From Lonicera japonica (Eukaryota > Streptophyta > Magnoliopsida > Dipsacales > Caprifoliaceae): DNA of 64,000 bases. The stretch covers positions 32,523,234 to 32,587,233 of the forward strand of contig CM038471.1 in assembly GCA_021464415.1 (NCBI GenBank), given 5' to 3'. Shown piece after piece: positions 25,111 to 58,870 of the stretch. Below the pieces are notes generated by a model. It made no database searches, was not told where the DNA came from, and worked only from the letters and a program-made list of their open reading frames with translations. The translations under genes and the position numbers were made by a program. Position 1 is the stretch's first letter, and each line of letters starts with the position of its first letter.

Positions 25111-28100
25111 TGGTTCAAAATATCAGCTAATACTGATCCGATACAGTTAATATAGAGTTAGAATATAGGATGCCGAACCATTATGATGACCTAATATGAT
25201 TAAATTTGCAGTATTTTTAAATTTTGTTAATATTTTATCGAAATCACACTGAGTCTCCAATATTGCACCGATTTTTCATTTTGTATTGAAAAAAAAAAGT
25301 GAACATAATTGAATAATTGAATAAAGTGACTAAAATTACAAAAAAAAATTGCTCCATGCTGGACTTTGGAGACATGGAATGTAAATTGGCAACTATTGAA
25401 AAAAAAACTGTTGTTTTGTTCCAAAGTAATTTGTTAATCTTTGCTTAATAATGATGGTGGAGGTGGGCTAGGTAGTGATGTTATACGATATACCAATAGT
25501 GGTGGTAAAGACGGTATTTATAATCCTGATACTGATAGCCAACATGATCGTGGTATGTCATGGCGCGGAGATGATAATTATTATGCCACACAAAACACAA
25601 ACCATGGATATTGACTCGGAATAAGTGAGCAGTGTAAGCATTTAGCAGATCTAACTAGGTTCCCTAGTTATGATGAGTATTCTAATGGCTATAATCTACA
25701 TTCAAAAAGCTATCGGCACATTGATGATCAACTGCATAGCTTAAACTTACGTTAACACCATTACGGTGGACATGGATATAACTATGATTATGATAGTCGT
25801 AGACATAGTATCTCTGGAGGCAGAATATGTAATAGTATTGCTGCTCGTGGTGGTCAACATAGAAGTGTTCATGGAACGTATCACGATGGATCTTCAAGTA
25901 GTAGCAATTATCAGGGATTCAAGTACTATCATCACTATGGCCAACTATGAGAATCCGCAAATGCGATCCTAGGGTTTCAACCTCTAGTTTGGGAGTCTGA
26001 AACATCGGAAAGGATTTCGTTGTTCCATTTGCTTTTATGTGTTGATAATTCATATCGAGTGTCCCTCTATCCTATTTTTAAATGTAAGAGGGTTCGTTCA
26101 GAGTCGCCAATACGTTTTACGAGAAAACGGATAAAATAGTTGTGTAAGAGGAAAGGCTACAGATAAGCCTTTCTTTACACGTTTGTCTACGAAACCAGGA
26201 TTCTCTGGTGTTCGAGAACTATGTTATGGATTGAAAATGTGTTAAGCACCCATTCCGCCCTTTCGGTCTCTAGTGGTTTTATATGTTTATTCTATGTTGA
26301 AAAACTTGGATGCTTTTACTGATATTTTACTACTTTCTAAAAATAACTCATGAAAACCTGATTTTGAAAAAAACGAAAAAAATGATGAAAACTTTGTATT
26401 CCGTGATCCGATGTTTTAGTTTTTTCGAAATCTGATTACTAGTGACAAAAGTTTATCTTATCTATTTTGAAATGAGAGTGATTCGGTATTGTTTCTTCAG
26501 ATAACAATATCAATTATCTCCTTAGGTTAATTTAAAAAAGATCGGATCTTATCAGAATTTATTTGATATGGAATTGAACTTTTGAGGAGAGTATATCAGA
26601 TACATTACAGTCTATATCAAAAATAACATATATCTGAATTTAATTCTTGAGTAAACTTTATCAGTCCGGGTTTTAAAATCTTGGTTTAATCCGGACGATA
26701 ATGACTTTACTTCTTCTAGTTTTACAAATGATTTTATCAGCGTTTTATCAAATTGTTTTGTTTGAAAACAATAGAATATCAATAACTTAACAATAAGTTT
26801 ATCTAGCTAGAAAGTGGATAGAGCAACAGATAAAAAGAGTCTACAAATAATAAACTTAATTAAAATTGAAACGAGGAGAGTGGAAGTAAATACTTTCGGT
26901 TTATATTGGCCCAAGTAAGCCAACTCCCTACTCACTTATAATACTTCCGAGAAATTAAGCAAATACATATATATAATAAACTTAATTAAGAGTTGAACAA
27001 ATCTACAATTACTAAATAAAGTACAATAAAACTAATATGCAGATATATTATTTAATTACTATAAGAGACTTTAGTTACATTCCCGACAATATATATAAGA
27101 ATGAAAGAGAGAAAATATAATACGGCAAAGAAAACCTCCGGCGGATATCAGCTTTCCTCTTTAAAATATTTTCAGCGGTCTGACTCTAGAAGGTGTTACT
27201 CCGGGTGCCAAGATTAGATCCGAGGCTCTTGCATAAATAAATGTTATCAAATGTGCTTTCGAAGAAGGCTTAAAAATTGAAAATATGAGATAGAGAATAA
27301 CGAGTTTTGGTGTAAAAATCGTGCTCCGAAGTTGCCGTCTAGAACCCATAGGGGCGTTGCCTTATTTATAGTGTTTGGGAGGGTTTGTCGCGCGACATTC
27401 CTCAACTTTATCTGTTTGTCGCGCGACATATCTGTTCATTGTACCTGTTTGTCACGCTACAAACAGATGAAATGATGGGTTCTGACACTGTAATGTGTCA
27501 GAAAGTGGTTGGTCGGTATTTAATGGGTTTGTTGCTAGACAAACGCATCTGGTAGGCCTATTTGTTGCGCTACAAACTCCCCCGAAGCATTCTTTAGTAT
27601 GTGGATGAGTTTCGGACTTGATATGTACTTTCTACGAATTTTCTTTTAAGGTTTTTGCGGGGGTCACGAATTGGGGTGTCTACACCAACCAAATTTTCCT
27701 GATTATGGGTCATTTAACCATTCATCTCATCTTTATCCCACAAGTACCAATTTTCAACCTCCTTTATATCATCATTCCTCATTGCTGGAGTCCTTGAGTA
27801 ATGATGATAATTATAATCCATATCATTATTCTAGACCTAATTGAACTTATATTTAAGATATTTGTGTTTTATAAGATTGTATTATTATATATTTATTGAA
27901 TTATGATGTAATATTATATTACCAAGTGCGACAGATTATGGTATTTCGATGTAGGTTATGTAATTTGTACTAGATAATGTTATTATGCTTATCTAATTGA
28001 TTCATTTTATTAATCTCTTACTTTAGAATTTTTTCATATTTTTTTTATAATTTTATGGGCCTTATAAATAATGAATCGGTCCCTTTCGCCAAAATCGAAA

Positions 28101-32753: not shown

Positions 32754-32758
32754 ACCTC

Positions 32759-34292
32759 TGTAGACACCCCGATCCGTGACCCCCGCAAGAACCCTAACGA
32801 CCTTTGAAAAGTACTGTTTTTGGAGTCCGGGACCCACCCGAACACCTCGAAACTGCCCTGAAAGGGATTGTTGGCCAAACAAACCTATTTTTAAGAGAAT
32901 TTGTCCGACGACAAATCAGTATGTCGCGCAACAATCTCCCTTGTGCCGCGCGACAAACCCCTCTGACACCAGACCATCCACTCTCTGACACATCAGTCTG
33001 TCAAAAACATCACTTCAGCCGTTTGTCGCGCAACATGGTACACACTATCGCGCGACACATGCCCTTTATGGGGAAGTGTCGCACGACATACTCTTCCCAC
33101 CACTATAAATAGGCCAACACCCCCAAGGGTTCAGGGGCAGCAACTTGGGAGCTAAGAATTCTTAGTTTTAAATCTGATTTTCTGTTCTTTTATCAAGTAT
33201 TTTCTACTATCGTTTTATCTCTGAAGAATTATCGAATCTATTCTCGACACTCGACCCGTCTCGTTTCTGGAATCGAATTCTCGGAAATATTTGAAGAAGG
33301 AAAAGATCATTATCGTCGGAGATCTCTCTGCCATATTATATTTTCTTTCTTATTATTATTATTCTCGTCGGGAAGGTAAAGAAAATCTCTTCTAATATTT
33401 AAATTATATGTCTGTGTACTCGTTTTACTTCCGTTGTTCTGTCCACGTTTTATTTGAATAAACTTATTGCCAAGTTATAAATAGTCTACTGTTTCAAAAC
33501 AAAGGACCTTGATAAAATCATTGACAAAACCAGAAGAGTAAGTACATTATCATCTGGACAAAATTCTGTTTTCCAAACCCAAACTGGTAAAACTTACTTA
33601 GGAGTTAAAAACCCGGTATATCCTATTTCTTTCATAGACTGTGATATGTCTGGTAGGACTCCCCTCAAGAGTTCTAATTTCATATTAAATTAGTCTCAAT
33701 ACAGGATTCAAACTTTTCCAAAAGAAGTTGAAACCCGAGAAAACCGTTATTATCTGAGAAATAAAACGGGAAACTCTCCCTGAAACAACCTTTTGTCACT
33801 TGTATTTACATCTTCCAAAACAAAACACTGAATTTTGAAACACAAAGGTTTTTATCCCTTTCCCCGCTTTTCCCAGAAATTAGGATTTTTTCACTTAGAA
33901 AGTAGTAGACTGTTAATAAAAGCATCCAAGTTTTTCAACATAAAATAAACATATAAAGACCACTAGAGACCAAAAGGGCGGAATGGGTGCTTAACACCTT
34001 TCCAATCCGTAACATAGTTTCCGAACCCCATAGAATCCTGGTTTCGTAAACAAACGTGTAAAGAAAGGCTAATCTGTAGCCTTTCCTCTTACACAACTAT
34101 TTTGTCTGTTTTCTCGTAAAATGTACCGGCGACTCTAAACGAACTCTCTTGCATCTAGAAATAGGATAGAGGGACACCTGATATTGGATTATCAACATAA
34201 CGAAGCAAATGGAACGACGGAATCCTTTCCGACGTTTCAGACGCCCTTGAACGGGAGCGAGACCCGGGGCGTTGCATTTGCAGATTCTCACG
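32759..34292 (+). repeat. 5' LTR of the Tat-type element
   Basis: The LTR starts with TG. It has a TATA box TATAAATA at 33104-33111 and, 5' to it, a run of palindromic boxes related to TTTGTCGCGCGACAAA, several mutated (for example at about 32900, 32920, 33022, 33048 and 33081). It ends with ATTCTCACG, where the right LTR has ATTCTCACA. The R and U5 parts follow the TATA box from about 33135. Confidence 0.9.
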
Positions 34293-35044: not shown

Positions 35045-36787
35045 ATGACTGACATAAGTGAGAATCAAATGGATCAAAGCCTAGCCGAGGCGTCAGCAGT
35101 TCAGCCAACCTTAGCCGAGATGCATCATTTGCTCATGACCGTCAGCTAGAATTTAGCAAACCTCACGACCGAGCAACAAGATACCCAAATTCGAATAGAG
35201 GAATTGTCAACTGAACGAACCACATCTCTAGGGTTTGGACGACTACCACCGAACCAAGATCCGAATCAAGGGCAGTCATCACAAATACTTCCCCTAGTCC
35301 AAGGAACCAACCCACCACAAACGGGTCCTGTCACAGCCGGTCCTATTCAAATCGATCCCAATAATCAGAATCAATGGGCCCTAGATTCAGGCTCCATTTA
35401 TCAATAATAAGAGCCACCCATCGTCTGGCCGCAACCCCAACTGGGTTTTGATCCCCAATACCAACCATGGCCACAAGTTCCTATAAGGCTTATTCCGCCC
35501 CCGGCCCCAATAGCCCCTTCTAATGAATACCCAGATATCAACCGACTCCAGGCAGTGTATGCAGAATCGGTTATAGCTCGAAAACAGCCCGACGAGGCAT
35601 CAAGAGAAAGTGAAGAAATGAAAAGGCTGAAGCAACAGATGAGGGTCCTGCAGAAAGGAGTATCCCTAATAAAAGGAGCAGACAAAATTACAGATATGAA
35701 TGCCTTCTCCCTTTACCCAGAGGCAAGATTACCCCAGGGATTCAAGCCCCCTTCCATCACCAAGTTCACAGGAACCACACCCCCTAAAATTCATCTTCAA
35801 TTCTACATCAGATCCATGCAAGTGTCCGATTGTGGAGAGCCGAAATTAGCTCAAGCCTTTCACATGACTCTCACGGGGGCCGCCCTGAGATGGTTTTTTG
35901 ATCTAGAGAGACACCACACAAAGACTTGGGGAGATATTGTCAAGGAGTTCATGACTAAATATGGGTCCAACGAAGATTTAGAAATTACTTGCAAACACCT
36001 GGAAATGGCCAAGCAAGGCGAGAAGGAAAGCTTCAGCGATTTCGTCACACGCTGGAGAGAGATGGCCTCCCAAATGTCCAAACGACCCGATGAAGAAGAG
36101 CAGTTGGAGATCATACAGAAGAATTTCACTCCAGCTGTATTGAGTTGCATGGGAAAACATGTATTCCCATACTTCAGAGCCCTGTTAAGCATGGGGTCAC
36201 AAGTAGAAGAAGAGCTGGCCAAGAAAGCAGAGATCGACACCAAGAAAGCCTCATACACCGGGAGAAAGACGACCACTTCAACCGTAAACAAACTAAGCTC
36301 ATACCCCTATCAACAAAACCCATTTCAGCAGCCACAACAAGCACCTCCGATGAGTTGGCCTGCACAAGGAGACTCTTTGAGCACCGAGGTTAAGAAAAGG
36401 AGAAACTTCTGTACCCTTCCCACTACCTTGGTCAAAAGCTTAGAACTACTCCGAAAGGCCGGACTAATCACTCCACTCAACCCGTGCCCCCCACCAAACC
36501 CTATTCCCAGAACCTGGAGAATGAATGAGAATTGTGCGTACCATCAAACTGCGGGCCATGACACAGAACGCTGTTTGGCTCTTCGCCATCTTATCCAAGA
36601 CCTAATCGAATCTGGAACCATTCCCGCACCCGGCGGTCCTAATGTTACTAACAACCCCCTTCCCAACCATGCTCCACCTGCAGGAATTAATGCTTTGACC
36701 ACTGGTGAAGAAGGTTTTGATCCCGTGGGACTCATTCGAGACGACCCAGCCTACAAATCACCTGCTATATCGCCAAAAAGAACTTAA
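35045..36787 (+). pseudogene. Gag polyprotein, three in-frame stops
   Basis: The frame begins at ATG 35045 (MTDISENQMDQ) and stays in one frame to TAA at 36785. It is interrupted by TAG at 35147 and a TAA-TAA pair at 35405-35410. It encodes a Pro/Gln-rich N-terminal region, a coiled-coil-like segment, and the capsid (retrotrans_gag) domain (KFTGTTPPKIHLQFY, AQAFHMTLTGAALRWF, KEFMTKYG). The zinc-knuckle-like box CAYHQTAGHDTERCLALRHLI, typical of Tat-type gag, lies near the end. The role would be particle assembly and RNA packaging. The absence of frameshifts with three stops suggests point-mutation decay, probably of methylated cytosines. Confidence 0.9.
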
Positions 36788-36991
36788 GTTGAACCAGGCC
36801 TCAATCCGATAATTGACCAGTAGATGGCTAAGATGAACTTTCTACCCGGGCAGGGGTTAGGAAAGGCCAATTAGGGGATCTCACAACCACTTACAATCAA
36901 AACCAATCCCAAAAAATCTGGGATAGGATGGACCCAGGATAAGAAGAAATAACCATAGAAGCCCCGAGGCCTTCCCAATGAGATAATATGT

Positions 36992-37765
36992 ATGACAGAG
37001 ACCTCCCCCAAGACTTTCAGTTGGTCGACGGAACTAGAGTCATCAGAAGCCTCAGAAGGATCAGACCCAGCATCCCTTTGGATACAGCAAATTACCCGTT
37101 CAGGAAGGGTATATCAGCCACCACCAATGGATGCCGAGAAATCACCGCCTCCTAAGGAAATAAGAGAGGATCGAGTACTGGAACAGTTGAAGAAAACCCA
37201 GGCACACATCACCATTTGGGGTCTCTTGGTTGCCTCCAAACCTCACAGGACTGCCTTCATCAAACTCCTAGACGAGGCCGTCATATCACCAGATTCCACG
37301 CCAGAACAATTACCAAACATAATTGGGTCGCTTACAGTCCAAAGAACTTTGTCATTTTCAGATGAAGACTTATCTCCACTGGGAAAGAAACACAGTCTGG
37401 CCCTCCATATTACTGTCCGAACCCGAGGAAAAATTCTGCCACAGGTCCTCATTGACAATGGGTCAACCATAAATGTATGCCCTTTGAAAACAGCCAAATG
37501 TTTGGGTATTTTTGATTCAGAGCTTTCTCCATCAGTTGTAACCGTTAGAGCCTATGACAACACTAGGAGGGCCGTTCTGGGTTCTTTGAAGCTTGATCTC
37601 ATGGTCGGTCCCGGAAACTTTTTGGCCGACTTTCAAATCATAGACATTCCCTCTAGTTTTAACCTCCTGTTGGGAAGAGCATGGCTACACGATATAAGAG
37701 CACTCCCCTCCTCCTTACACCAGAAGATTAAGATACCGTTCGAATGGAAGATAAGCACCATCTAA
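36992..37765 (+). pseudogene. Retroviral-type aspartic protease region
   Basis: An open stretch contains the protease active site VLIDNGSTINVCPLKTAKCLG, where the usual D-x-G is D-N-G as in many Tat proteins. The flap/substrate strand GNFLADFQIIDIPSSFNLLLGRAWLHD follows. It would cleave the Gag-Pol polyprotein. It is separated from gag by stops at 36785-36990, and the frame ends at TAA 37763 well before the RT. Confidence 0.85.
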
Positions 37766-37861
37766 GAAGATCCTGAAAGGACCTTGGCGGATCTAGAATT
37801 ACCTGTCTTGGGCATCGGGAGTCAAAGCATACAGCTGGGAGGCTTTTCTTACGAGTCTTAA

Positions 37862-38605
37862 GTGCAAGCCCTCACCACCCAGAGAATCAAGTATCTTTCC
37901 CCTGATAATATCCCCGGTCTCAGCGCCAAAATCCCAAATATGCTGAGAACGATGAAATACTTACCTGGAGCCAGCTTGGGAATGGGGCAGCCAGGATTAC
38001 TTCAGGCCTTAGAACCAGTAACGAGGCATGAAAGAGAAAGGTTGGGGTACCAACACACCGAAGAAGACAACCAAGAGAAAAGGGCTCGAGGGCATCAATA
38101 TCCGAGTTTTAGCTCTCTTAATGGGTTTTTTGTCAAAGAAGGAGAGGACTTCCCCTTTTGCGGCTTTCAGGAGCCTTGGAGAAAGAGCGACGGAGATAAC
38201 CTTCCAGGATGGAAAATCTTCTATGAAGAGGACCTTTATATCAAGGAAAATATTATACACAGCTTCTTTACCAAGTTAACGATCGGGCCGAGAGAAGAAA
38301 ATAAAGACGAGGACGATGAAGAGGAAGAAATGATCGGAGATCTCTTCGACGTCATGGCTCTAGAGGATGATGAGCCAAGAGACGACCATGTACACTTAAT
38401 ACACGCTAATCCATATTACCAGGAAAAGGGGGAAAATAGTGAAATTGTAAGGGTAAGAGATAAGAGTGAGGGTAGGGCTAAGGAGGAGTCTCTTCTAGAT
38501 TTACTTTTCAAACTTGTACCTGTAAGCACTATTATTAATGAAGAAGATTCTATTTTGCGGTATCCTGTTAGTTCTGATTATGTAATTGCTTATATGGAAA
38601 TATAA
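37862..38605 (+). pseudogene. Protease-RT linker region of Tat pol
   Basis: An open frame between protease and reverse transcriptase. It has a G-patch-like segment (LGMGQPGLLQALEP) seen in Tat/Athila pol linkers, then an acidic stretch (EDEDDEEEE-like). No catalytic domain is recognised. Confidence 0.55.
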
Positions 38606-39659
38606 AGACTAAATGAACACCCTGAACAGGAGGAGCAGCGCATACGGAGCGAAGAGGGGACATTCTTGTGATTAATCTCGGGACAAAAGAGGAAAAGAAA
38701 GAAGTTCGTATTGGGGCGAATCTAAATGAGACAGAAAGAGAAGAATTCACACAAACTCTGAAGGAGTACATGGATATCTTCGCCTGATCCTATGCCAATA
38801 TGCCAGGATTTATGCCGATATGCCAGGATTGAACAGCCAGATAGTAATACACGAGATACACACCAAGCCGGAGTTTAGGCCCGTCAAGCAGAAATTGAAA
38901 AAACTTACGCCTGAATGGTCCCTGAAAGTAAAAGAAGAAGTGATGAAACAACTGAGTGTGGGGTTCTTGCGAGTAATCAAGTACCCTTTATGGTTAGCCA
39001 AGATTGTGCCTATTCCAAAGGCAAATGGGAAGGTCTGCATGTGTGTAGATTACCGAGATCTCAATAAAGTTTGCCTAAAAGACGATTTCTCATTACCCAA
39101 CATTGATTTGATAGTGGATAATATTGCCAACCATGCCTTGAAGTCGTTCGTAGACGGTTTCGCTGGGTATAATCAGATCAAGATGCACCCAGAGCACCAA
39201 GAAAAAATGACATTTATCACGCCATGGGGAACATATTGCTACACCGTTATGCCATTCGGGCTGAAGAATGCCGGGGCAACATATGAGAGGGCAGCTACAG
39301 TTATCTTCCACGACATGATTCACAAAAAAGTAGAAGTATATATGGACGATATGATAATCAAGTCGAAGGAGAGGGAAGGCCATGTACCAGCCTTACGAGC
39401 TTTTTTTGACCACTTCCGCCAGTACCAGATGAGACTCAATCCGCAGAAATGTGTGTTTAGGGTAACCAATGGAAAACTCCTGGGCTATGTCATCAGTAAA
39501 AAAGGAATCGAGCTAGACCCTGCCAAGGTTCGAGCTATGCGAGATATGCCCGAACCTCGTACTGAGAAAGAAGTCTGGGGATTTTTGAGTAATTTACGGT
39601 ACATCAGCAGGTTATCTCTCAACTTACTCAGACTTACGAACCCATCTTCGAATTCCTGA
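38606..39659 (+). pseudogene. Reverse transcriptase domain
   Basis: The open part (38820-39659) contains VKQKLKKLTPEW, the fingers and palm blocks KVCMCVDYRDLNKVC, FVDGFAGYNQIKM, TVMPFGLKNAGATYERA and the catalytic VEVYMDDMIIKSK, followed by LGYVISKKGIELDPAKV. It copies element RNA to DNA. The upstream segment with the usual INLGT and YMDIFA motifs is broken by stops and by a small duplication of ATATGCCAGGATT around 38800-38830. The C-terminal part continues after a stop at 39657 in another frame. Confidence 0.92.
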
Positions 39660-39811
39660 GGAAGTCTTCACCAGGAGAATAGGACGATCAGTGCCATGAG
39701 GCTTTTGATAGAATCAAAGACTACTTCTCCAACCCTCCAGTATTAGCCCCACCACAGACCGAGCTACCACTAATCCTATACCTAACAGTCATTAATTCGG
39801 CTATAGGAGCC

Positions 39812-40453
39812 ATGCTAGCCCAACATGTGATTGATACCCGAAAAGAACAGGCCATCTACTACATCAGCAAAAAAATGTCCCCATTTGAGATAAACTACAT
39901 GTCATTGGAGAAATCATGCACCGCTCTTGTTTGGGTAACACAGAAATTACGGCACTACATGCTGGTTTTCCCGGTCATCTTGGCATCACGAATAGATCCG
40001 CTAAAATACCTATTCGAGAAACCAGCTCTTTCAAACCGTATAGCAAAATGGTTATTCCTACTCACCGAATTCGACATTACCTACATAACCCAGAAGGCAG
40101 TCAAAGGCAAGATCATAGCTGACTACCTAGCCCACAATCCAATATTGGGGGATATGTTCGAAGAAGTCGAGTTCCCAGATGAAACTATCATGAATATCGA
40201 GATCGATGAAGACTGGAAATTGTACTTTGACGGGGCCGCTAACCGAAACGAGAACGGGATAGGCATCCTGTTAGTCTCTCCAGACCAAACCCACTCCCCG
40301 GTATCATATCGTCTAGACTTCTTCTGCACCAACAATGTGGCCGAGTATGAAGCCTGTATAATCGGATTAGAGATCGCGCTCCAAAAAGGTATAAAGAGAA
40401 TACAAGTGTACGGAGATTCGGCATTAGTAGTCCACCAAGTTCTAAACGAATAG
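39812..40453 (+). pseudogene. RNase H region with second (archaeal-type) RNase H
   Basis: The first half is the connection/RNase H1 remnant (AIYYISKKMSPFEINYMSLEK, FDITYITQKAVKGKIIADYLA). The second half begins WKLYFDGAANRNENGIG and continues NNVAEYEACIIGLEIAL, then YGDSALVVHQV. These hold the catalytic Asp, Glu and Asp of an archaeal-type RNase H. This extra RNase H domain is diagnostic of the Tat lineage. A TAG after 40450 ends the frame early. Confidence 0.9.
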
Positions 40454-40588
40454 AAGATCAGAGATGAGAAGTTAGTGCCATACCTTGCCCAACCGGAGGA
40501 TGTCGCATGAAGATTTGAGCATTCGGAGTTTTACTATGTCCCCAGGTCACAAAACAGTTTTGCTGACGCACTAGCAACCCTGGCATCT

Positions 40589-41958
40589 ATGATTGATATC
40601 CCGGAGGGGATAGAAGAAATAACTTTTACCGTACAAAGAAGATCAGGACCAGCACACTGCATGGCCCTTGAGGTAGAGAATGAAAAGAATGGGGACTCAA
40701 CCACTTGGTTTCACGACATCTGGAACCTATTGAAAAATCATCGGTATCTCGAGGAAACAGACAAGAGAACGCGGGTCACACTCAGGAGATTAGCATCAAG
40801 GTTCATACTTTGTGCCGGAAGGCTGTATAAAAGGAACTACGACTGGACCTATCTCCAATGTCTCACTGAAGAAGAATCTGTCAAAATGATGGATCAGATA
40901 CATGGGGGCGATTGTGGACCTCATATGAGCGATCATACACTTGCCCGCAAAATCATCAGATAAGGTTATTACCGGTCTACCCTGCAGAACGACTGCGTTA
41001 ACCATGTACGGTTGTACGCCGTTGTCACAAGTGCCAAATCTCTGCTAAATCTCAGAAACTTCCTCCGAAAGAGTTGTACAACATGACTGCTTCCTGGCCT
41101 TTCGCAACCTAAGGAATCGACATCATTGGAAAGATTTCACCCAAAGTCAGCAACGGCCATGAATTCATACTAGTGGCCATCAACTACTTCACCAAATGGG
41201 TAGAAGCCGAGTCTTTCCAAACCCTTGACGTCAGAAAAGTTGCCCGATTCACCAAACGAAATATCATCTATCGGTATGGGGTCCCACACGAGATCATCTC
41301 GGACAACGGCACCCACTTCGAAGGAGAGGTTAATACAGTCATGGAGGAATACGGTATTACCAGACACAGATCTTCGCCATACAAACCACAAGCCAATGGG
41401 GCAGTTGAGGCCGCCAATAAGAACCTGAAGAATATCCTAAGCAAGATGACCGACACCTATCGAGACTGGCCCGAAAAATTACCATATGCATTGTGGGGAT
41501 ACTGCACCATCGAGAGGGTCTCTACCGGAGCAACCCCATTCTCCCTTACATACGGGATGGAAGCAGTCCTCCCTGTTGAATTAGAGGTCCCCTCCCTCAG
41601 AGTAATGCTAGAGAATCAAGTTAACGAGCTGGACTGGGCCCAGGCACGTTACAACGAGCTGGCCTTGCTAGATGAGAAGAGATTGAGAGCCTCATACCAC
41701 CACCAAGGGTATTAGAAGAGAATCGCTCAAGCATTTAACCAGAAAGTAAAGACTCGAGGTATCAATGAGAACGACATCGTGTTGAAAGAAATTCGAGAGC
41801 CAGCCAGAGACCCAAAGGGAAAGTTCGGACAGAAATAGACAGGGCCGTACATCGTCAAAGAGATTGACACAGGGGGTGCCGCCATACTCATTGACTTTGA
41901 CGGACAATTACTACATTCATCAGTCAACATGGATCGTTTGAAAAAGTATTATCAATAG
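40589..41958 (+). pseudogene. Integrase
   Basis: The order of parts is complete. The HHCC zinc finger (MMDQIHGGDCGPHMSDHTLARKI) is followed by a broken CHKC part. The catalytic core has GIDIIGK with the first Asp, SDNGTHFEG with the second Asp and NGAVEAANKN with the catalytic Glu. The C-terminal part ends at TAG 41956-41958. In-frame stops occur (after HTLARKIIR, and TAA in place of the Trp before GIDIIGK). It would insert the cDNA with a 5-bp duplication. Confidence 0.92.
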
Positions 41959-42177: not shown

Positions 42178-43434
42178 CTAATCCCTAGGGGTTGGCCAAG
42201 TAGGATCCTCAGTGGCCAAATTAATTCGAGCCTCATCCAGGATCTGGTACGCAAAGATGATGCTCTCAACTGTGGGCTCAGAATCCATGAACCGGAACCA
42301 CTCCATTTGGAAGGGATCGTCAATCAGCTCCCCTTCCAGAGACCCCCAATGAGAACGGATGATGTCAGCCCGGAGGGGCCGGGTAATACTAAAATGGGCA
42401 TAGTTGAACTGACGAGTCAGTCGAGCACGCCACATTCTCTCCACTGATAAAGAAACATGCTGGGTCACAAACTTAGACATGGAAGAAAAGTTGTTCAGGC
42501 CGAGGGTAATGTCCTGAGAAACGTTGAACTGCTGAAAAAGACGTCCTGGGAGATAAAAGGAAGTGAACCAGAGCCCACGGAGCCGAACGTAATTCTTCCC
42601 TCCGGTACTAAGCACCATCACCCTCAGCTTCCACCAAGGAATGTTCCACCAAATAGCCCAAAAATTCTCTGAAAATCACACTGTCCAATCAGAGGAAGAC
42701 ATGGTCAAAACACCAAAGAGGGGATAACGAAAGAAGTGCGTCGGGTTGTCTAGTCGAACCCCATTGAAACCTACCGATCGGAAACGCTCCAACAGCCACT
42801 TGTATAGTAGACGCGGACTTCCCCTGAAGAAGGGTGAAGCTCCCCTTTGAAGATCATGTAGGTCGTTCAGAGTCTCTGCAAGAACGATGGGCAATATAGA
42901 CTCTCTATTCCTATCCTGGTAAATCAAACTCAGAATAGTCGGATCAACACGAGAAGAGCCCGTCACCAGTAGCATATCAGGAACAAGACAGATTAAGGCT
43001 GCCGCAGTACGCCCCATGCTATAAGAGGCTCTCTCTTCGTAACAATGAAATAACCTCACCATTTTGTGGAGGTCAAGAAGCCCGTCGATAATAAAACCAT
43101 CACAGGCCGCTTGGGGAACGACTAACAGAGCAATCAGCATATCTCGAGGACCAATTTTTTCTATGGAAACAGCCATCGAGAGATGAACGTCAGACCGCAA
43201 CAGTCAGGAAAACTCCTCGTAAGTCGGGCAGAGCTCATCTAACTCAAAACGGAAAAGATGATCCACAGGGCTCCAGAAATACAAAGCGCCTAACAAAAAG
43301 GAAAAATCTATAAGACGATAGCACCTGCTCGCTAAAGGACTGAATGCACCAAAGTTGAAGCCATTCTCAGAAGATATCAAAGCATTTCAGGCTTCAACAT
43401 AAGAAAAATCAGAATTTGTAAAATAAGAAGACAT
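42178..43434 (-). pseudogene. Antisense ORF 2 of the Tat-type element, DUF7745-like
   Basis: A single frame of 418 codons runs on the minus strand from ATG 43434 (MSSYFTNSDF) to the stop at 42178 with only three in-frame stops (codon 16, before LLRSDVHL, and after SSDWTV) and no frameshift. The segments YFWSPVDHLFRFELDELCPTYEEF, ILPIVLAETLNDLHDLQRG and SPRLLYKWLLERF resemble the DUF7745/plant-mobile-domain group, whose cellular role is unknown. It has its own TATA box at 43473-43480, about 40 bp upstream. Extra antisense ORFs after pol are known in Tat-lineage elements. The role may be regulatory or transposition-related; that is inference. Confidence 0.8.
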
Positions 43435-43472: not shown

Positions 43473-43560
43473 TACTTATAGCAAAAAAAGAGGGTCTTGT
43501 ACCTGTTTGTCGGGCGATAAACCCATATCCAAGAGGGATTGTCGTGCGACAATCTTATGT
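43473..43560 (-). promoter_or_regulatory. Antisense promoter with palindrome boxes (for antisense ORF 2)
   Basis: On the minus strand a TATA box TATAAGTA (43473-43480) precedes antisense ORF 2. Immediately upstream (43500-43557) lie two degenerate copies of the LTR palindrome, TTTGTCGGGCGATAAA and ATTGTCGTGCGACAAT. The arrangement copies that of the LTR promoter. Confidence 0.65.
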
Positions 43561-47057: not shown

Positions 47058-47459
47058 GGGTATCACAAGTAAAAGTATGTGTTCACTAAATCGGACGTTA
47101 TTTCTAGGCAGACATGCATACTAAACACAAAAATTGTTTAAATACATGCAGGAAACGACATAAATAATCGAACAAATAAAATACACGATAAGAAGACATA
47201 CCAGAGATTGTCGACGGATCTCGTGAGAAACAGGCTCCATCAAGAGCCAAGGAACATCCGGGACCGGAGCAGCCCGGGTAACATCTCGGTAGACTATCGC
47301 CCGACCGCGGTCCACCCCATCCTCACCGTACCTGTCGAGGTCCGCCCAGTCATCATGATGAGGGCTGCACCGGAGAACTCCTTGGGCATCGGTAAAGGTG
47401 ACCTCCTCCTGGTCACCCTCAAGTCTACACTACACCAAATTGGGCAAAATGTCACTAAA

Positions 47460-47640
47460 ATGCGCGGAGCCTTTGTCACGGTTTTAAACCGTCACAATAA
47501 GTTGTAACAGTTTTGAACCGAAACAAGGAAAAAATGGCACGATTTGTTAGCTTATAACACTTAATTTGTAACATTGTCACGGTTTTAAACCGTTACATTG
47601 GTAGCGGTATGATTGTAACGGTGTCAAACCGAGACAATTG
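47460..47640. repeat. CACTA left subterminal repeat array
   Basis: Repeats of TTTGTCACGGTTTTAAACCG and variants (GTAACAGTTTTGAACCG, CGGTGTCAAACCGAGACAA) in both orientations, mirroring those at 52757-53100. Confidence 0.85.
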
Positions 47641-48546
47641 TTAATTTAGGGCACGAAAATACGAGCGGGATAAAATTTTCATTCTCCCCCTTTTTTATTT
47701 TCACTTTCGCTCTCCTCTCCCTCTCTAATTTTTACGATATCCCTTTTTTCCCCTTTATTCTTCTCTCTCCCATCTCTCCCCCTTTCTCAAGCGCCCAAAA
47801 TCATCCCCTCTGCTCCTCTCATCTCTTCGCACCTCATTCTCCTCCCAAGCTCGATCCTCGCTCTCTCATCTCTTCGCACCTAGTCCCCTATCATCTAGCT
47901 CGATCCTCGCTCTCTCATCTCCTCCCACGCTCAACCCACTAGCTCAAACACACATGAGCCCTAGCCTCTACTAGCCATAGCCTCTCAAGTTCTCACTGAT
48001 CAACCCCTCTACTCAGCTTTCAAGGTCGCCGCTTGAGCCCCCAAACCCACGCTCACTGATCAACCCCTCTGTTCCTCTCATCTTCGCTCCTCATCTCCTC
48101 CCCCCTCAACCCTAGCCTCCGCACAAAATCTTAAACCTTCTAGCTCAAATGCACCTCATCTCCCTTTTATTAGCCTTAGCCTATCAAGTTCGCCGGCGTT
48201 TTGTATAGATTCAAGGTTGCTAAGTGAAGGTATGTTTTTTATTTTAAAATTTATATTCCGAAATTTGATTTTTTTGGCTAAATATTAGAGTTTCAATTAG
48301 TGTAGTTAATCTTGCTCATATTAAAGATTAAAGATTAAATATTAAACATTAGAGTTTTAATTAGTGTAGGTTTTTTTTGGCGAAATTTGCTAAGTCAAGG
48401 TGTGAATCAGTGTATGTAGATTAAAGATTTGAGGTTAAAACCTAATTTTCCAAGTATTCAAGGTTACAGCTTCTTTTAGATACATCCGTAGCCCTCACTC
48501 CCTACGGATGTGCGTGCTTAAGTTGTTAGTGAAGTACTCACATATA

Positions 48547-48599
48547 TTATTATTATTATTATTATTATTATTATGATGATGATGATGATGATGATGATG
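48547..48599. repeat. ATT/ATG trinucleotide microsatellite
   Basis: About nine TTA units followed by about nine TGA units within the CACTA element. Confidence 0.9.
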
Positions 48600-48840
48600 T
48601 TAATTAATCTAATTCATTACTTTGTTTTGTGTATCACTGAAATGGATTATTTCCATTGGAATTTTGGTTAGCGTTATTTGATTCGGCTGATGTTTTTTAT
48701 AATTTCTGCTGAATGTGCATAAATAATAATAAGGTTAATTACATTTACTCATCCTTAAAGTTTCTCATGATATATTTATTAGTAGAGATATGGGTACTAC
48801 TGATAGTTGTTTTTTATACAAATTTTTGAAATTTGTGCAG

Positions 48841-51109
48841 CCAAGGAGCATGTTGTGGGTTAGTATAGCACGGGTCCAAAGTTGAGGGAGAATGACTTAG
48901 ATATTCATGGCTTATTTACTGAGTAAGATTTAATATATGTGTTCTTCAATTTGACATATATCTACCCCCATTCCTCATTTCTTCCCTAGAGAAACCAAAA
49001 GAGGGGATAATATTTTTATGCCTTTTTCTATATTTAGTCGACTACTTGACTCGAGCCAAATCATTCTAACTCTTTCTTTTTTTTCCTTTTGAGAAAAAAC
49101 TTTCTAATGACATATTAATGATTACTTGTTGACCAATGGATCGAGTACGTTTCAATGTTTTGTCATCTTCTATTTCCCCCCTTGTTGGAGCCCTAGTTTC
49201 AAAGTTTATGCCTACTCAATGTCGTTCTGAAGGCATAAATCTGTATAGTGTTAACATTTTCGAAATAGTAATGTAAAGATTTATAAATGAAATCGCGTAA
49301 AGGACATGGATTCATATTCAGGTATAGACAGTGTATAAAACAGTACAACACAATAAAAAAATGTAGGAAACAAGAAGACCTATAATCAAGGGGTCATTCA
49401 CAAGTGGGGCAAATAGAAAGCTAAACAAAGTGTTTAAGTCCAAACATAACAAACCTGAGCAACATCTCACAACCCTTTAATCCTACTACACTATTGTGTA
49501 CAGACCTATGATCAGCACTGTCTTGAAGAAAATTACTACAGTTTAAGACTTTAAGCTATATTAATTGTAAATTTTATTTCCTTGTTTTTTTAGCTTATAT
49601 CTTTATTTCTTATTGGCTAATACTTCCTGTAAATGCAGCTACGTCCCAAATCATGTGTTGGTAATAATAGATGTCCAACCTAAGGAGCTGGGAATACTCA
49701 CTAAAGCTTACTGTGCAGTTAAAGAAGTTAAGGAGGTAAGACTATTGTCGTCGCTAGCTTTTCATCTACCTATTGTGCCTGATTGAACACATACAATTTA
49801 TCCAATGTGAATAAAATATAGTTTTCTATGACGTGTTAATAAAATCTAATTTTTTCCATTGTCATCATGTTGCCTGCTTATATGGTCATAGAATGCTACT
49901 CAAAAAAGCCAGAAGAATTTTGTTCATGTTCCTTCAGAAATTGCTGCTCATGAAGTGGAGGAAATTGGTAATCCATGATATGAAAATCATATTTTTCAGT
50001 GACCCCCTACCCCCACTCTTTTCTCTCTCCATCATGCTCAGAAAAAAGATGATGCTGTCAACAGGAGTTGAGCACTTGCTGAGGAATGTAAAGGATACAA
50101 AGATCAGCACGCTCACAACAGAGGCATGTGTTCTTTCATTCTTTGCCTTTATTATGTGTTTGGTAAACAATTTAGAAAAATATTGAAAACATTACTAGTT
50201 TTATGAGAAGTTGGAAAAGATGTGAGTGATTTGATGAATGTTTTATTACTTTTTGGGTTTTCCATGGAATAAAATTTTTTAGGCAGTAGGTAAGAAAATC
50301 TTGATGTGGAAAACAAGGAAAAGGTGGAGATATATAATATCAAATAGTTATTATTTGATCAATATTTATTATTTGATTTGATTATCAAAAGGGAAAGAAA
50401 TGAATGTTAGTTATTTTTTGTCCAACATACACAGGTCACTGGGAAGCTTACATCTTTGAAGGGTTTAGATGCACGGTTACAAGAGATATGTGGGTACCTC
50501 AATCTAGTTATTAATGGAAAGCTTCCATTAAATCATGAGATTCTATACCATTTGCAGGACCCTTTCATCTGTATATGTACATATATAATATCTGATATTG
50601 CATGTATACCACTCCACATATGAGAGTATTAAGTTCTTCAATTTTTTACTAAAAATATTGTTACCACTAAAACTAAATTTTGCCGCTGAGTTCTGCATAT
50701 GGATGAAGTTTAGTATTTCTAAGTTCTTTAACAGTGCCACCCCTTCCCCCCATGTCGATGTCATTTTTAACCCCATTATATTCATACATAGACCTCAAAT
50801 ATGCCTTTATTATATTTCTACTCTGTATCAATATTTTGGCTGATCCTTTATTGGCTTTGATTTTTGTTAAAATTACATGATGTATTTAATCTTCTTCCTA
50901 ATCTCAACGTGGTCGAGTTAATTAAGGCACTTGCAGGTAAAGCAATGAAGCTAGCATAATTCTTTTGCATGTTACTTGGTTAAATTGTCATCTTGTACAT
51001 TTCTTATTGTTACCTGTTATTTGTGCAGTGAAATTGAACGACTAGATATTGGTATATCTTTCGTCCCTGATCTGAAGTGACAGCTTTCTACAACCTGATC
51101 AATAACAAG
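48841..51109 (+). pseudogene. Captured fragment of the 26S proteasome subunit RPN8 gene
   Basis: Seven exon pieces encode consecutive parts of RPN8 (26S proteasome lid, MPN domain protein): 48841-48922 (AKEHVVG, then PKLRENDLDIHGLF), 49639-49735 ([19 protein letters not shown]), 49892-49967 (NATQKSQKNFVHVPSEIAAH), 50065-50123 (GVEHLLRNVKDTKISTL), 50435 to about 50559 ([18 protein letters not shown]), about 50878-50936 (DVFNLLPNLNVVELIK) and 51029-51109. Most splice sites and phases are kept, including a GC donor after 50123. The first exon has TAG in place of a Trp, exon 5 lacks a donor and exon 7 has stops, so it is dead as a protein gene. The first MPN-domain exons and the C-terminal tail are absent. 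Confidence 0.9.
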
Positions 51110-51423
51110 GTCACACTCTTTTGCTAACACAAAATGTTTATATCGCTATACAAACTTCAAGACCCTGTTTGGTTCGCGGATGGATACTTTTTACTTGGTT
51201 GTGTTTGATTGATTGTGTAATTTTTTTTTTACATGGTAAAAGAAAATTGGGGTTTTTTTGCATACATGGAAAATGAGAAAATTAAGCTAAATGGGAAAAT
51301 AATATACGTACATATATATTAACTATATACGTGTATATATATATATATATATTTGAATAAAGGTTCTTAATGGGAAAATAATATAGGACTTTTCCCCACT
51401 CATACACCCCCTTAAACTTATAA

Positions 51424-52149
<726 letters not shown>

Positions 52150-52756
52150 TAGCTCATGATCCTTCACCCTGCAGCTTTTTTCTACTAGCAATTTTTGGTT
52201 CAGTTTTTTGGGATTTTTATTCAGTATCTGGCAGTTACTTAGCTTCTATGGTTGGCTACGTGCTTCACATTATAGCAGCCACAATTTTATGTATAGGCAG
52301 TCTACTTTATTGGTTTCTACCTTAGTTTTTTTGGTAAAAGTTGTATTGGTTGGGTTAATTGCATCATGGACTTCTAGGAAATTTAGTTAGTCCATTTTGC
52401 AAATGTTCTTCTAGTATAGACTCTTCTAAGCATTTTTTATGAAACTTTTGGGAGTGGGCGTATACACTTTCCATCTTGTATATTTTTCTGGTTATTTATG
52501 ATATGCCCTCTAATGCTTTAGTTTGGGGTTAGAGATTTCTCCAAAAAAGAAAAAGAATTTTTTTTGCTTATGAGGTGTAATTGCCAGATTTATGGTATTA
52601 ATAAATTTGCTTGATTTTTGGTTTTAATAAAATTTCTTGATTTTTGTTGGAATTATTGGTATATAGTTCTTGAATTGTTGTAGCTATATAAATATATATG
52701 ATAATTTTTAGGAAATCAAATTTTCAAAAATAATTTTTTTTATATTATTTTATAAA

Positions 52757-53100
52757 TTGTCACGGTTTAAAACCGTGACAATTCATAGCTCCAGCAGCAC
52801 TGCACAAAAAGCAATATTTCCTAATAGCAATATTCAAAAGACTATTGTCTCGGTCCTAAACCGATACATATTTTTATCTTGTGACGGTCTTAAACCGATA
52901 CAACCTGTTAACATTGTCACGGTTACAACCGTGACAAAGGTACCCTTTAGCGTGCAAGACATCCCCTTAGAGGACCGTGACAATTGTATATTGTCACGGT
53001 TTTGAACCGAAATAGTTGTCTTTGTCACGCCCTTATTTGTCACGGACTTTAGCCGTGACAAAGGGCCTTTGTGACGGTTTAAAACCGTGACAATTCGGGC
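52757..53100. repeat. CACTA right subterminal repeat array
   Basis: At least seven copies of TTGTCACGGTTTAAAACCGTG-like units in both orientations, ending 14 bp before the right terminus. Confidence 0.85.
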
Positions 53101-53275
53101 ATTTTGGTGTAGTGCTATCTGGCTATGCAGGATCCATCTGCATATGAGTGAAATAATAAGGAAAGACGGAAAATTAGAGAGAACGGCAAGGCTTCCGCGC
53201 TTGAGAGAAGAGAGAAAGAGAGCTAGAGAAAGAAAGAGAAAGGAGAGAATGAGGTGGAATGAGCTCAGCAAGGGG

Positions 53276-53359
53276 TTTATATACTGGTTCAGTTTGTCGC
53301 GCGACAAATAGGCTTTTTGTCGCGCGACAAACACCTTTCCACCTAGCTGTCGCGCGACA
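53276..53359 (-). promoter_or_regulatory. Antisense promoter with three perfect palindromes
   Basis: On the minus strand TATATAAA (53276-53283) lies about 130 bp before the ATG of antisense ORF 1, with a CT-rich leader between. Just upstream are TTTGTCGCGCGACAAA at 53293-53308 and 53316-53331 (perfect 16-bp palindromes) and TGTCGCGCGACA at 53348-53359. The same boxes sit upstream of the LTR TATA box. Confidence 0.75.
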
Positions 53360-55171: not shown

Positions 55172-56704
55172 TGTAGACACCCCAATCCGTGACCCCCGTA
55201 AAAACCCTAACGACCTTCAAAAAGTACTATTTTTGGAGTTCAGGACCCACCCGAACACCCGAAACTGCCCTAAAAAGGATTGTTGGCCAAACAAACCTAT
55301 TTTTAAGAGAAATTGTCGCACGACAAATCAGTATGTCGCGCTACAATCTACCTTTTGTCGCACGACAAACCCTTCTGACACCAGACCATCCACTCTCTGA
55401 CACATCAGTCTGTCAGAAACATCACTTCAGCCGCTTGTCGCGCGACATGGTACACACTATCGCGCGACACATGCCCTTTATGGGGAAGTGTCGCGCGACA
55501 TACTCTTCCCACCACTATAAATAGGCCAACACCCGCAAGGGTTCAGGGGCAGCAACTTGGGAGCTAAGAATTCTTAGTTTTAAATCTGATTTTCTGTTCT
55601 TTTATCAAGTATTTTCTACTATCGTTTTATCTCTAAAGAATTATCGAATCTATTCTCAACACTCGACGCGTCTCGTTTCTGGAATCGAATTCTCAGAAAT
55701 ATCTGAAGAAAGAAAAGATCATTATCGCCGGAGATCTCTCTGCCGTATTATATTTTCTTTCTTATTATTATTATTCTCGTCGGAAAGGTAAAGAAAATCT
55801 CTTCTAATATTTAAATTAGGTGTCTGTGTACTCGTATTACTTCCATTGTTCTGTCCACGTTTTATTTGAATAAACTTATTGCCAAGTTATAAATAGTTTA
55901 CTGTTTCAAAACAAAGGACCCTGATAAAATCATTGACAAAACCAGAAGAGTAAGTATATTATCATTTGGACAAAATTCTGTTTTCTAAACCCAGACTAGT
56001 AAAACTTACTTAGGAGTTAAAAACCTGGTATATCCTATCTATTTCATAGACTGTGATATGTCTGGTAGGACTCCCCTTAAGAGTTCTAATTCCATATTAA
56101 ATTAGTCTCGATACAGGATTCAAACTTTTCCAAAAGAAGTTGAAACCCGAGAAAACCGTTATTATCTGAGAAATAAAACGGGAAACTCTCCCTGAAACAA
56201 CCTTTTGTCACTTGTATTTACATCTTCCAAAACAAAACACTGGATTTCGGAACACAAATGTTTTTATCCCTTTCCTCGCTTTTCCCAGAAATTTGGGTTT
56301 TTTCACTTGGAAAGTAGTAGACTGTCAGTAAAAGCATCCAAGTTTTTCAACATAAAATAAACATATAAAGACCACTAGAGACCGAAAGGGCGGAATGGGT
56401 GCTTAACACCTTCCCAATCCGTAACATCATTTTCGAACCCTATAGAATCCTGGTTTCGTAGACAAACGTGTAAAGAAAGGCTAATCTGTAGTCTTTCCTC
56501 TTACACAACTATTTTGTCTGTTTTCTCGTAAAACGTACTGGCGAATCTGAAGGAACCCTCTTGCATCTAGAAATAGGATAGAGGGACACCCAATATTGGA
56601 TTATCAACACGACGAAGGAAATGGAACGACGGAATCCTTTTCGATGTTTCAGACGCCCATGAATGAGAGCGAGACCCGGGGGGTCGCATTTGCGGATTCT
56701 CACA
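55172..56704 (+). repeat. 3' LTR of the Tat-type element
   Basis: Collinear with the 5' LTR. The palindromic boxes are better kept here: perfect TGTCGCGCGACA at 55436-55447 and 55489-55500, with degenerate copies around 55310, 55335, 55358 and 55460. The TATA box TATAAATA is at 55515-55522. The short purine stretch just upstream (GAGTTGAGAGGG) is a weak polypurine-tract candidate. Confidence 0.9.
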
Positions 56705-56709
56705 ACCTC

Positions 56710-58870
56710 GTATAGCACCACCACCTAGCCCACCTCCACCATCATTATTAGCATCATCATCATCATTCCCTCCGTCGTCATCGTTGTCTTCACTTGAGAA
56801 AACTGTAAGTCTTTAAGGTTGCTTACGACGGAAACCACCCTCCATCTCTTCCTCGCTATTTTGAATACCCTCATCCAATACCCACTCATCCAATATATCA
56901 CCATCATCAAATATATTATTTAGGTTGACTAGGTTATAATAATCGTCTGCATCACTTATGTACGTCAAATTTCTAACTTTGAGGCGCATATTGCAGTGCA
57001 CATACACTAGTTTATATAACTTTGTCATTACTAACTGATTGCGAAGTTTTGCATGAATTATTGACCATGTACTCCATCTTCTTTCACAACCAGAAGATGA
57101 ACATGTTTGACTTAGGATTCTTATGGCAATGCGCGTGAGGTTAAGAGTCGATTCATCATAGTTATACCACCATTCAGTTACATAAAAATAAGTATAAGTA
57201 AAAAAAATATATAAGTATTACTATTATCACATTGCATATGCTTATAATATTATGTTTAATTTAAATAGGTAATTTAGATAGTAATATCGGGAAAAAGACC
57301 TTTTCACTGCTTTTTTTATAAAAATTGATCCAAACTCTCCATTAGGATTAACAAATTATCTGATCTCATTCATTACTTGCACTTCTTTTTTTTAAGTCAG
57401 GTTCCAATCTTTTGATAGCCTCTTTTATTCCAGTTCTTATTTCTTAGTCACTTGAAATATTGCCTTCATATTGAAACATTGGATTCAAAAAATATGTTGC
57501 GATAAGATAAAATAAGTATATGTTAATAATTATAAATTTCATTGAGCATATAAAAAGTATTTAAACTTAAAAATAGAAGTACCTACTGCATGTAATTGAC
57601 AATCCCATCTATTTTCAATCACATTCTAGTACTTTTTCCAATTGCTAACGTTGTCTTTTATGCTAAGTTTAACCATAGCCATTCATTAGATATAACAGAA
57701 AGTGTAGGCTTTTTATCTTGATCAACCACCTTTAAAAGCAGCACCATAGTTCCATGACCAACATAACTTCAGTTACTCGTTGCCAAAATCGATCGGTTAA
57801 AATTAAATCAACGACCTTCGATGCTACCCCCTTTGGTTCTTTTCTCGATTGAATTCAACACATTCACTTATTGTGTACATTCTCTTTAATTCAATTTGAT
57901 GTTGTATAAGACTTTCAAGGGCAATATATTCAGTTGCGAATCTTGTAATGCCCGATCTTAACTATTCTCTATCATTGGTATACTGCTTCATTAGATTCAC
58001 AATTTTTTGACTATTATAAATGAAAAATGTGATCAGCATGGCTTCATTCAATGTAGATTTAATGGATTTCATGTTGCCTATGTCTTCAAGCATTAAATCT
58101 AAACAATGAGCATCACAGGGAGACCAAAATAAGTGCTTTCTCTGGTCTATTAACAACTTGCCAGCTGCTTTGAAGTTGGGCTCGTTGTGAGTTACGACTT
58201 GTACGACATTGCTCTCCCTAATTTCTTCTACCACTTTATCCATAAATGAAAAGATATAATTAGCATTCTTGATTTTATTTATTGTGTCTATTGAGGTGTG
58301 GTATATCATGTTTCGGTCTGAATAAATCATGAAGTTAATAATTGGTTTATTTGTTCTTGAACTCCATCCATCACACATAATAATGCAACCATATTCGGGC
58401 CATTTTGCTTTAAGAGTATTGATATAAGCCTCAGTCTCTTATACCTCCTCATTCAAGTACACCCCACCAATTTAATAACCCGAAGGACTTTTAATCATGG
58501 GGCCAACCTTATTAATTATATCAATCATTGTTTAATAATAAGGTCCACTATCAACTGCATTGATTGGAATTGTATTAAAGTGAAAAAAATTTGCTTATAG
58601 CCTTCCCTACTTTCTTTACGCCATTAGCCAAGAACATTCCCTTCATCGTTTTCTTATAAGCTTTTTTAGGTTTGAACATGTGTGAATCAATTCCAATTAA
58701 TGGCGTATTGACTCATTCCTTAACTGATTAAGTTCTTAATACTTGTGGTCGCTTAATTACTCCCAGAAATAAATGGTCGTGATCTTGAAACATAATATCT
58801 CCATTTATCTTCTGCTAGGAGCGCCATTTGTCTCATTTCTTTGATTGCTTTTTTAAGATGTAATCTTTTA
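56710..58870 (-). pseudogene. hAT-like element 2, transposase part (DUF659 and hAT dimerisation)
   Basis: Read on the minus strand from about 58870, broken frames give HLKKAIKEMRQMALLAEDK and then a DUF659 domain. That domain contains VGPMIKSPSGY, YINTLKAKWPEYGCI and, in the open stretch 58378-57962, MCDGWSSRTNKPIINFMIYS, VVQVVTHNEPNFKAAGK and WSPCDAHCLDLMLEDIG. Near 57100 is the hAT C-terminal dimerisation motif CERRWSTWSIIHAKLRNQL, then an acidic DDDDAN-type tail that continues across the Tat insertion at 32753. The DUF659 Asp residues are present but stops and shifts abound. The BED zinc finger and the 5' end were not found. Confidence 0.85.

What the first reader, a model, noticed from the sequence alone, without database searches (positions are those of the whole stretch)
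53276..53359. A CpG palindrome code shared by LTR promoters and internal antisense promoters
Seen: TTTGTCGCGCGACAAA (perfect 12-16 bp palindrome) and variants sit immediately upstream of a TATA box in the right LTR (55436-55522), left LTR (32900-33111), solo LTR (27363-27585, minus), and also upstream of minus-strand TATA boxes before antisense ORF 1 (53276-53359) and antisense ORF 2 (43473-43560). Spacing to TATA is similar each time. Inference: one factor, or one RNA/DNA hairpin, controls sense and antisense transcription of the element, or the antisense promoters arose from U3 copies. CpG retention in AT-rich decayed DNA suggests past selection. I know of no description of this motif.
Basis: partly seen in the sequence, partly recalled or inferred. 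Interest (0 to 1): 0.88.

Follow-up and report, generated by a model that had tools for sequence, protein, structure and literature searches.

The report
Shared palindrome arrays in retrotransposon promoters
In one decayed plant retrotransposon, the same rare 12-letter DNA palindrome sits in small, regularly spaced clusters just upstream of its main promoter and of two backward-facing internal promoters, which suggests that one DNA-binding protein once switched both directions together.

Summary
TGTCGCGCGACA (up to 2 mismatches) occurs 20 times in 64 kb, against 0.41 expected. All 20 lie in five clusters: both LTRs and a related solo LTR of a plant Tat-type Ty3 element, and upstream of two minus-strand TATA boxes inside it. 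The nearest site's centre lies 17.5-21.5 bp from the TATA in four clusters, 33.5 in the fifth. Neighbouring sites within groups are 20-23 or 30-33 bp apart, near whole helical turns. Between two related LTRs, the three TATA-proximal sites match at 33 of 36 positions, the remaining U3 at 161 of 265. The antisense promoters show no U3 homology outside the sites. One is followed by an ATG and a 418-codon frame with only 3 internal stops; the other by an ATG whose frame stops after six codons, just before a CACTA-type insertion.

Best reading: a dyad site for one dimeric DNA-binding protein, arrayed on one helix face and shared by sense and antisense promoters. Hairpin and U3-copy ideas fare poorly; special CpG retention since insertion is not seen. 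Host or element binder: open. No other copy, genome or transcript could be examined.

The parts
53295..53359 (-). Antisense promoter 1: three exact TGTCGCGCGACA sites at 53295, 53318 and 53348 (spacing 23 and 30)
53276..53283 (-). TATATAAA of antisense promoter 1; its first base lies 17.5 bp from the centre of the nearest site
   Evidence: sequence
53141..53143 (-). First ATG found downstream of antisense promoter 1; its frame meets a stop after six codons, and the CACTA-type insertion begins 26 bp after the ATG
47428..53114 (.). CACTA-type DNA transposon insertion (CACTACACCAAAwTG terminal repeats, target duplication CTA) between antisense promoter 1 and the rest of the antisense region
   Evidence: ends and flanks printed
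43508..43551 (-). Antisense promoter 2: two imperfect sites (2 and 1 mismatches), 32 bp apart
43475..43480 (-). TATAAG of antisense promoter 2, 33.5 bp from the centre of the nearest site
42178..43434 (-). Antisense frame 2: ATG at 43434, 418 codons plus final stop, three internal stops (Markov mean 19, minimum 6 in 5000); weak collinear DUF7745 match below its cut-off
55172..56704 (+). Right LTR (ends approximate; target duplication ACCTC), 94.3% identical to the left LTR over 1535 aligned positions
55314..55500 (+). Six sites in right U3 at 191, 171, 149, 69, 47 and 16 nt before TATAAA (55516)
32759..34292 (+). Left LTR (ends approximate)
32902..33088 (+). Six sites in left U3 (first with 3 mismatches), TATAAA at 33104
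25946..27684 (-). Related solo LTR on the minus strand (ends approximate; target duplication GTTGG)
27386..27574 (-). Five sites in solo U3 (27530 with 3 mismatches) at 16, 47, 80, 160 and 193 nt before TATAAA (27370)
35411..41715 (+). Broken gag-pol region: Retrotrans_gag, RVT_1, RT RNase H followed by a second RNase H (RVT_3), integrase core

Best explanation
The palindrome is a DNA-level binding site for one dyad-symmetric (dimeric) sequence-specific protein. Copies are repeated near whole helical turns on one face of the DNA just upstream of TATA boxes. It formed a shared enhancer or operator for the sense promoter (U3 of the LTR) and for two internal antisense promoters of a Tat-type Ty3 retrotransposon, so that gag-pol RNA and the antisense accessory transcripts were switched together. 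Shown here: the sites, their TATA proximity, the phasing, the conservation of the proximal sites between two diverged LTRs, and an old antisense coding frame downstream of promoter 2. Inferred: protein binding, dimerism, activation rather than repression, and past transcription. The protein is unidentified; a host transcription factor is the plainer guess and an element-encoded one is possible.
For: 20 hits against 0.41 expected, all in five TATA-proximal clusters. Ten neighbouring spacings (20, 22, 22, 31, 31, 33, 33, 23, 30, 32) concentrate near multiples of 10.5 bp: V 0.758, P 2.5e-5 against uniform 15-39 (1e-5) and 0.0037 against uniform 20-33. With one spacing shared by descent dropped (n=9): 7.3e-5 and 0.0079; without the solo LTR (n=7): 3.6e-4 and 0.013; n=9 with the best period from 9 to 12 searched for: 0.0019. 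Against the full-element LTR, the solo LTR has an 11-bp longer gap between two sites (22 versus 33), about one turn. U3 solo versus right LTR: proximal three sites identical at 33 of 36 aligned positions, the rest 161 of 265, Fisher P 1.4e-4. Antisense promoters share only the sites and a TATA with U3. Antisense frame 2 starts 46 bp below the first base of its TATA and has 3 internal stops against 19 expected.
Against: No binding, expression or start-site data. Only one full copy and one related solo LTR were seen. Over all six right-LTR sites the conservation excess is weak (52 of 69 versus 142 of 232, P 0.032). The phasing test is post hoc; the two 80-bp gaps between proximal and distal groups, left out of it, are not whole turns (7.6). 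The phasing of the antisense promoters alone is weak (n=3, P 0.038 to 0.17). Antisense promoter 2 has two imperfect sites and a longer TATA distance. Antisense promoter 1 has no open frame shown behind it in this copy: its first ATG frame stops after six codons and the insertion follows. The alignment that gives the conservation figure may itself be pulled by the sites.
Confidence: 0.68

Rival explanations
1. A specific host transcription factor binds the dyad; the element gathered its sites in several promoters independently, as other plant LTR elements use host heat-shock or WRKY sites. This is the best explanation with the binder named as host.
For: Plant LTRs commonly recruit host factors (HSFA2 at ONSEN, WRKY at EVADE; passages of PMC12786077). 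The antisense promoters share no other sequence with U3, as expected for independent gain.
Against: No part of the 64-kb window outside the element and the solo LTR carries the motif at up to 2 mismatches, though the window is small. From memory I could match the site to no standard plant motif; no motif library was on hand.
Confidence: 0.42
2. An element-encoded protein, made from an antisense frame, binds the dyad in U3 and in its own antisense promoters and forms a feedback circuit that activates, represses or un-silences the element.
For: Sites at up to 2 mismatches are confined to this element type in the window. The TRP28 domain of Retand antisense proteins is predicted to bind DNA (PMC11963269) and the Grande antisense protein is nuclear and made from its own promoter (review PMC7264820). 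VANC21 of VANDAL21 binds dense motif arrays in its own family (PMC5735166).
Against: No known DNA-binding domain was found in the antisense pieces scanned; only a sub-threshold DUF7745 match (12.5-13.4 bits, cut-off 26). The structure job did not finish.
Confidence: 0.25
3. The sites act as RNA hairpins or DNA cruciforms rather than as protein sites.
For: Perfect inverted symmetry of the exact sites.
Against: Of 13 altered symmetric pairs none is compensated, 12 are broken and 1 is G-U. U3 sites lie upstream of the predicted start. TATA-anchored helical spacing fits DNA binding.
Confidence: 0.05
4. The antisense promoters are moved copies of U3.
For: Same sites and TATA arrangement.
Against: With sites masked only one 11-nt match remains, E 0.14; the spacings also differ.
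Confidence: 0.06
5. Chance or a simple-sequence effect.
For: Other perfect 12-bp palindromes exist in the window, nearly all AT-rich.
Against: 0.41 expected against 20 observed, and the TATA proximity.
Confidence: 0.01

Closest known systems
Maize Grande gene23 and Retand antisense ORFs (Tat lineage)
   Same: Long pol-to-3' LTR region with antisense coding frames; Grande gene23 is transcribed from its own internal antisense promoter (review PMC7264820, passages seen; PMC11963269, abstract, passages and part 1 of one section seen; the original Grande paper not read).
   Different: No TRP28 domain found in the pieces tested; LTR about 1.53 kb, above the 315-1194 bp listed for recently active Retand clusters. 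In the passages seen, neither paper describes a motif shared by LTR and antisense promoter.
VANC21 and its YAGTATTAY arrays in Arabidopsis VANDAL21
   Same: Dense arrays of a family-specific short motif in noncoding parts of a mobile element, bound by an element protein (PMC5735166, passages seen).
   Different: VANDAL is a DNA transposon (recalled), its motif is non-palindromic and arrayed in one orientation; here the binder is unknown and the sites sit at TATA boxes.
Host-factor enhancers in plant LTRs (ONSEN, EVADE)
   Same: Host-factor sites in the LTR (for ONSEN upstream of the start) that drive its transcription (PMC12786077, passages seen).
   Different: None of the passages seen links such sites to internal antisense promoters.
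HTLV-1 U3 21-bp repeats with Tax, and the antisense gene HBZ
   Same: Repeated U3 sites and an antisense gene in one retroelement (recalled; that HTLV has an antisense promoter in its 3' LTR is in PMC7264820).
   Different: Unrelated virus; its antisense promoter lies in the 3' LTR, not internally.
MAIN/MAIL1 'DOWN' promoter motif
   Same: A promoter motif linked to TE-derived plant mobile domain proteins (PMC7156037 and PMC9899485, passages seen).
   Different: The motif instance given for MORC1 (CATGCAGTTT) is not this palindrome.

Membership tests
Ty3/Gypsy LTR retrotransposon | Two LTRs with target duplication, gag and RT-RNase H-integrase order | tested here: met
   Target duplication ACCTC and LTR pair; gag, RT, RNase H, integrase in order (integrase 32.0 bits, just below its 32.6 cut-off)
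Tat lineage | Second RNase H domain after the RT RNase H (criterion recalled) | tested here: met
   PF17917 then PF13456 in one frame
Tat lineage | Reverse transcriptase phylogeny | not tested
   No reference set on hand
Retand (Tat sub-lineage) | Antisense ORF with TRP28 (PF04195) | tested here: not met
   No PF04195 match in the antisense pieces scanned; not every short frame was scanned and the antisense region near 47 kb is broken up, so a decayed domain could be missed
Retand (Tat sub-lineage) | LTR 315-1194 bp, pol-3'LTR up to about 6.6 kb in recently active clusters (PMC11963269) | tested here: not met
   LTR about 1.53 kb; pol to 3' LTR about 13.5 kb, of which 5.7 kb is the CACTA-type insertion
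Grande-like antisense gene with its own promoter | TATA and coding frame antisense between pol and 3' LTR | tested here: met
   TATAAG 43480, ATG 43434, 418-codon frame with 3 internal stops; for the 53.3 kb promoter no open frame was shown
Grande-like antisense gene with its own promoter | Detected antisense transcript | not testable with these tools
   No RNA data
DUF7745 protein | Score above Pfam cut-off | tested here: not met
   12.5 and 13.4 bits against 26, E 0.075 and 0.041, collinear over about 170 residues in the second run
Element-encoded regulator with own binding sites (VANC-like) | Element protein binds the array | not testable with these tools
   Needs DAP-seq or EMSA

The most novel reading that the evidence does not exclude
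A plant LTR retrotransposon carried its own regulatory circuit: an antisense-encoded DNA-binding protein recognised an 18-bp dyad (GTTTGTCGCGCGACAAAC) arrayed at whole helical turns in U3 and in its own two antisense promoters, so that one element protein co-ordinated sense and antisense transcription, much as complex retroviruses do.
Probability: 0.22. Interest if true: 0.78.

Novelty: new variant of a known kind. Interest (0 to 1): 0.52.

Why it matters
Antisense genes of Tat-type retrotransposons are widespread but their function is unknown (PMC7264820, PMC11963269). A site array shared by the LTR and the antisense promoters would tie the two transcription units together and gives a concrete bait, a 12-18 bp dyad, with which to fish out the regulator. 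If an antisense protein binds it, plant retrotransposons would have a counterpart of retroviral transcription regulators.

Tried and rejected
Rejected: RNA hairpin (0 compensated pairs); antisense promoters as U3 copies; special CpG retention after insertion; identity with the MAIN/MAIL1 'DOWN' motif (instance CATGCAGTTT); filing as Retand (TRP28 not found, LTR too long).

Literature string searches: the 12-mer in 1 paper, unrelated by title; the 10-mer GTCGCGCGAC in 8 papers, that one included, none on retrotransposons by title; topic searches (20 of 126 listed; 10 of 42 listed; 1; 10 of 54 listed). Supplementary files were not searched.

Rows dropped: the left LTR was left out of the 16 'non-redundant' sites and of the spacing set because it repeats the right LTR; two 80-bp gaps were left out of the phasing test (10 of 12 spacings used); site 27530 (3 mismatches) was included in both although it is below the threshold.

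Changed on checking: solo LTR end 25946 (was 25948); the stop after six codons behind the 53143 ATG added; spacing of the L001 copies corrected.

Full report
What is there. The window holds a decayed plant Ty3/Gypsy element with LTRs at about 32759-34292 and 55172-56704 (94.3% identical over 1535 positions) and a 5-bp target duplication ACCTC. It encodes gag, RT, RNase H, a second RNase H and integrase on the plus strand. The double RNase H is a mark of the Tat lineage (recalled). A related solo LTR lies on the minus strand at about 25946-27684 with target duplication GTTGG; its U3 matches that of the full element at about 65%, its downstream part at about 75%. A CACTA-type transposon (47428-53114, target duplication CTA) lies between pol and the 3' LTR.

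The motif. TGTCGCGCGACA occurs 20 times at up to 2 mismatches against 0.41 expected. All 20 lie in five clusters. At 3 mismatches 7 more appear, 2 of them inside the LTR clusters and 5 scattered, so 2 mismatches is about the right cut. Each cluster has a TATA box beside it on the strand of the unit it would serve. Centre-to-TATA distance is 21.5 bp in both LTRs and the solo LTR, 17.5 (19.5 if the inner TATAAA is taken) at 53.3 kb, and 33.5 at 43.5 kb. A random position has a TATAA[AG] within 30 nt outward on either strand with probability 0.078.

Layout. Counted from the TATA, sites lie at 16, 47, 69, 149, 171 and 191 nt in the full element's right U3 and at 16, 47, 80, 160 and 193 nt in the solo U3. 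Both have a proximal group, an 80-bp gap and a distal group. Neighbouring spacings within groups are 20-23 or 30-33 bp. Their concentration near multiples of 10.5 bp has P 2.5e-5 (uniform 15-39) to 0.0037 (uniform 20-33, the strictest null tried). With one homologous spacing removed it is 7.3e-5 to 0.0079, without the solo LTR 3.6e-4 to 0.013, and 0.0019 after searching over periods 9-12. The test is post hoc and leaves out the two 80-bp gaps, which are not whole turns. The three antisense spacings alone do not settle it (P 0.038 to 0.17). Among 16 sites (right LTR 6, solo 5, antisense 3 and 2) the bases T1, T3, A10, C11 and A12 never vary, and the flanks lean to GTT before and AAC after (9 to 12 of 16 per position), giving an extended dyad GTTTGTCGCGCGACAAAC.

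Selection. Between solo and right U3 the proximal three sites agree at 33 of 36 aligned positions, the remainder at 161 of 265 (P 1.4e-4). Over all six sites the figures are 52 of 69 against 142 of 232 (P 0.032). This fits constraint while the family was active. After insertion the sites decayed like the rest: 7 of 72 motif columns and 80 of 1462 other columns differ between the two LTRs; 5 of 17 motif CpGs and 21 of 57 others are lost in one LTR.

Antisense units. At 43.5 kb the minus strand reads: two sites, TATAAG (43480), ATG (43434), then a frame of 418 codons with 3 internal stops to 42178. A first-order Markov model gives 19 stops on average and at least 6 in 5000 trials; the other five frames have 15-26. 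This is an old coding frame, weakly and collinearly similar to DUF7745 (12.5-13.4 bits, below the cut-off of 26). At 53.3 kb the minus strand reads: three exact sites, TATATAAA, a CT-rich leader, ATG at 53143 whose frame meets a stop after six codons, then the CACTA-type insertion; no open frame behind this promoter was shown. With the sites masked, neither antisense promoter resembles U3 (one 11-nt match, E 0.14). So the sites were gained or kept independently of U3 flanks.

Mechanism. A 12-bp perfect dyad, repeated near whole turns and anchored to TATA boxes of three otherwise dissimilar promoters of one element, is what one expects of a site for a dimeric DNA-binding protein that acts on all three. 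Hairpins are unlikely: of 96 symmetric pairs 83 are unchanged, 12 broken, 1 G-U, none compensated. Activation or repression cannot be told from sequence. Whether the protein is the host's or the element's is open. Plant LTRs often use host factors (PMC12786077, passages). But antisense proteins of related elements are nuclear or predicted to bind DNA (PMC7264820, passages; PMC11963269, abstract, passages and part of one section), and VANC21 shows that a plant mobile element can encode a protein that binds motif arrays in its own family (PMC5735166, passages).

Known or not. The 12-mer is in one paper of 5.39 million, unrelated by its title; the inner 10-mer in eight, none on retrotransposons by title. 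Topic searches (for some only the top of the list was shown) gave no paper on a motif shared by LTR and antisense promoters in the listings or passages seen. Subscription papers are mostly not held, and the original Grande promoter study was not read. So the sharing appears undescribed in what could be searched, no more.

Limits. One full copy, one solo LTR, no expression, no other genomes: the genome search did not answer in nine calls, the protein database was off, and the fold job did not finish.

Noticed in passing
27482-27501 and 55397-55416: A second U3 dyad, CTGACA-N8-TGTCAG, lies between the proximal and distal palindrome groups in solo and right LTR (one base changed in the left LTR); its halves resemble GRF-type sites (recalled).
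   Followed up: partly
25491-25831, 27685-28132, 31792-32239, 32414-32754: The solo LTR and the full element sit in two inverted copies of the same repeat, 84-86% alike.
   Followed up: partly
[quoted passage not shown]
   Followed up: no
12124-18546: Large minus-strand frames with endonuclease-like and reverse-transcriptase-like sequence, probably a LINE (by eye), lying between frames at 24451-24990 and 9528-10235 that look by eye like parts of an RNA pseudouridine synthase gene.
   Followed up: no
57965-58438: Strong DUF659 match on the minus strand (E 4.6e-48), probably a hAT transposase remnant.
   Followed up: no
L001:4530-4571, and L007, L008: Bacterial contigs carry arrays of the same dyad; L001 (Methylococcaceae by title) has two exact copies with a near-copy between them, 15 bp apart start to start. 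Probably convergence.
   Followed up: no
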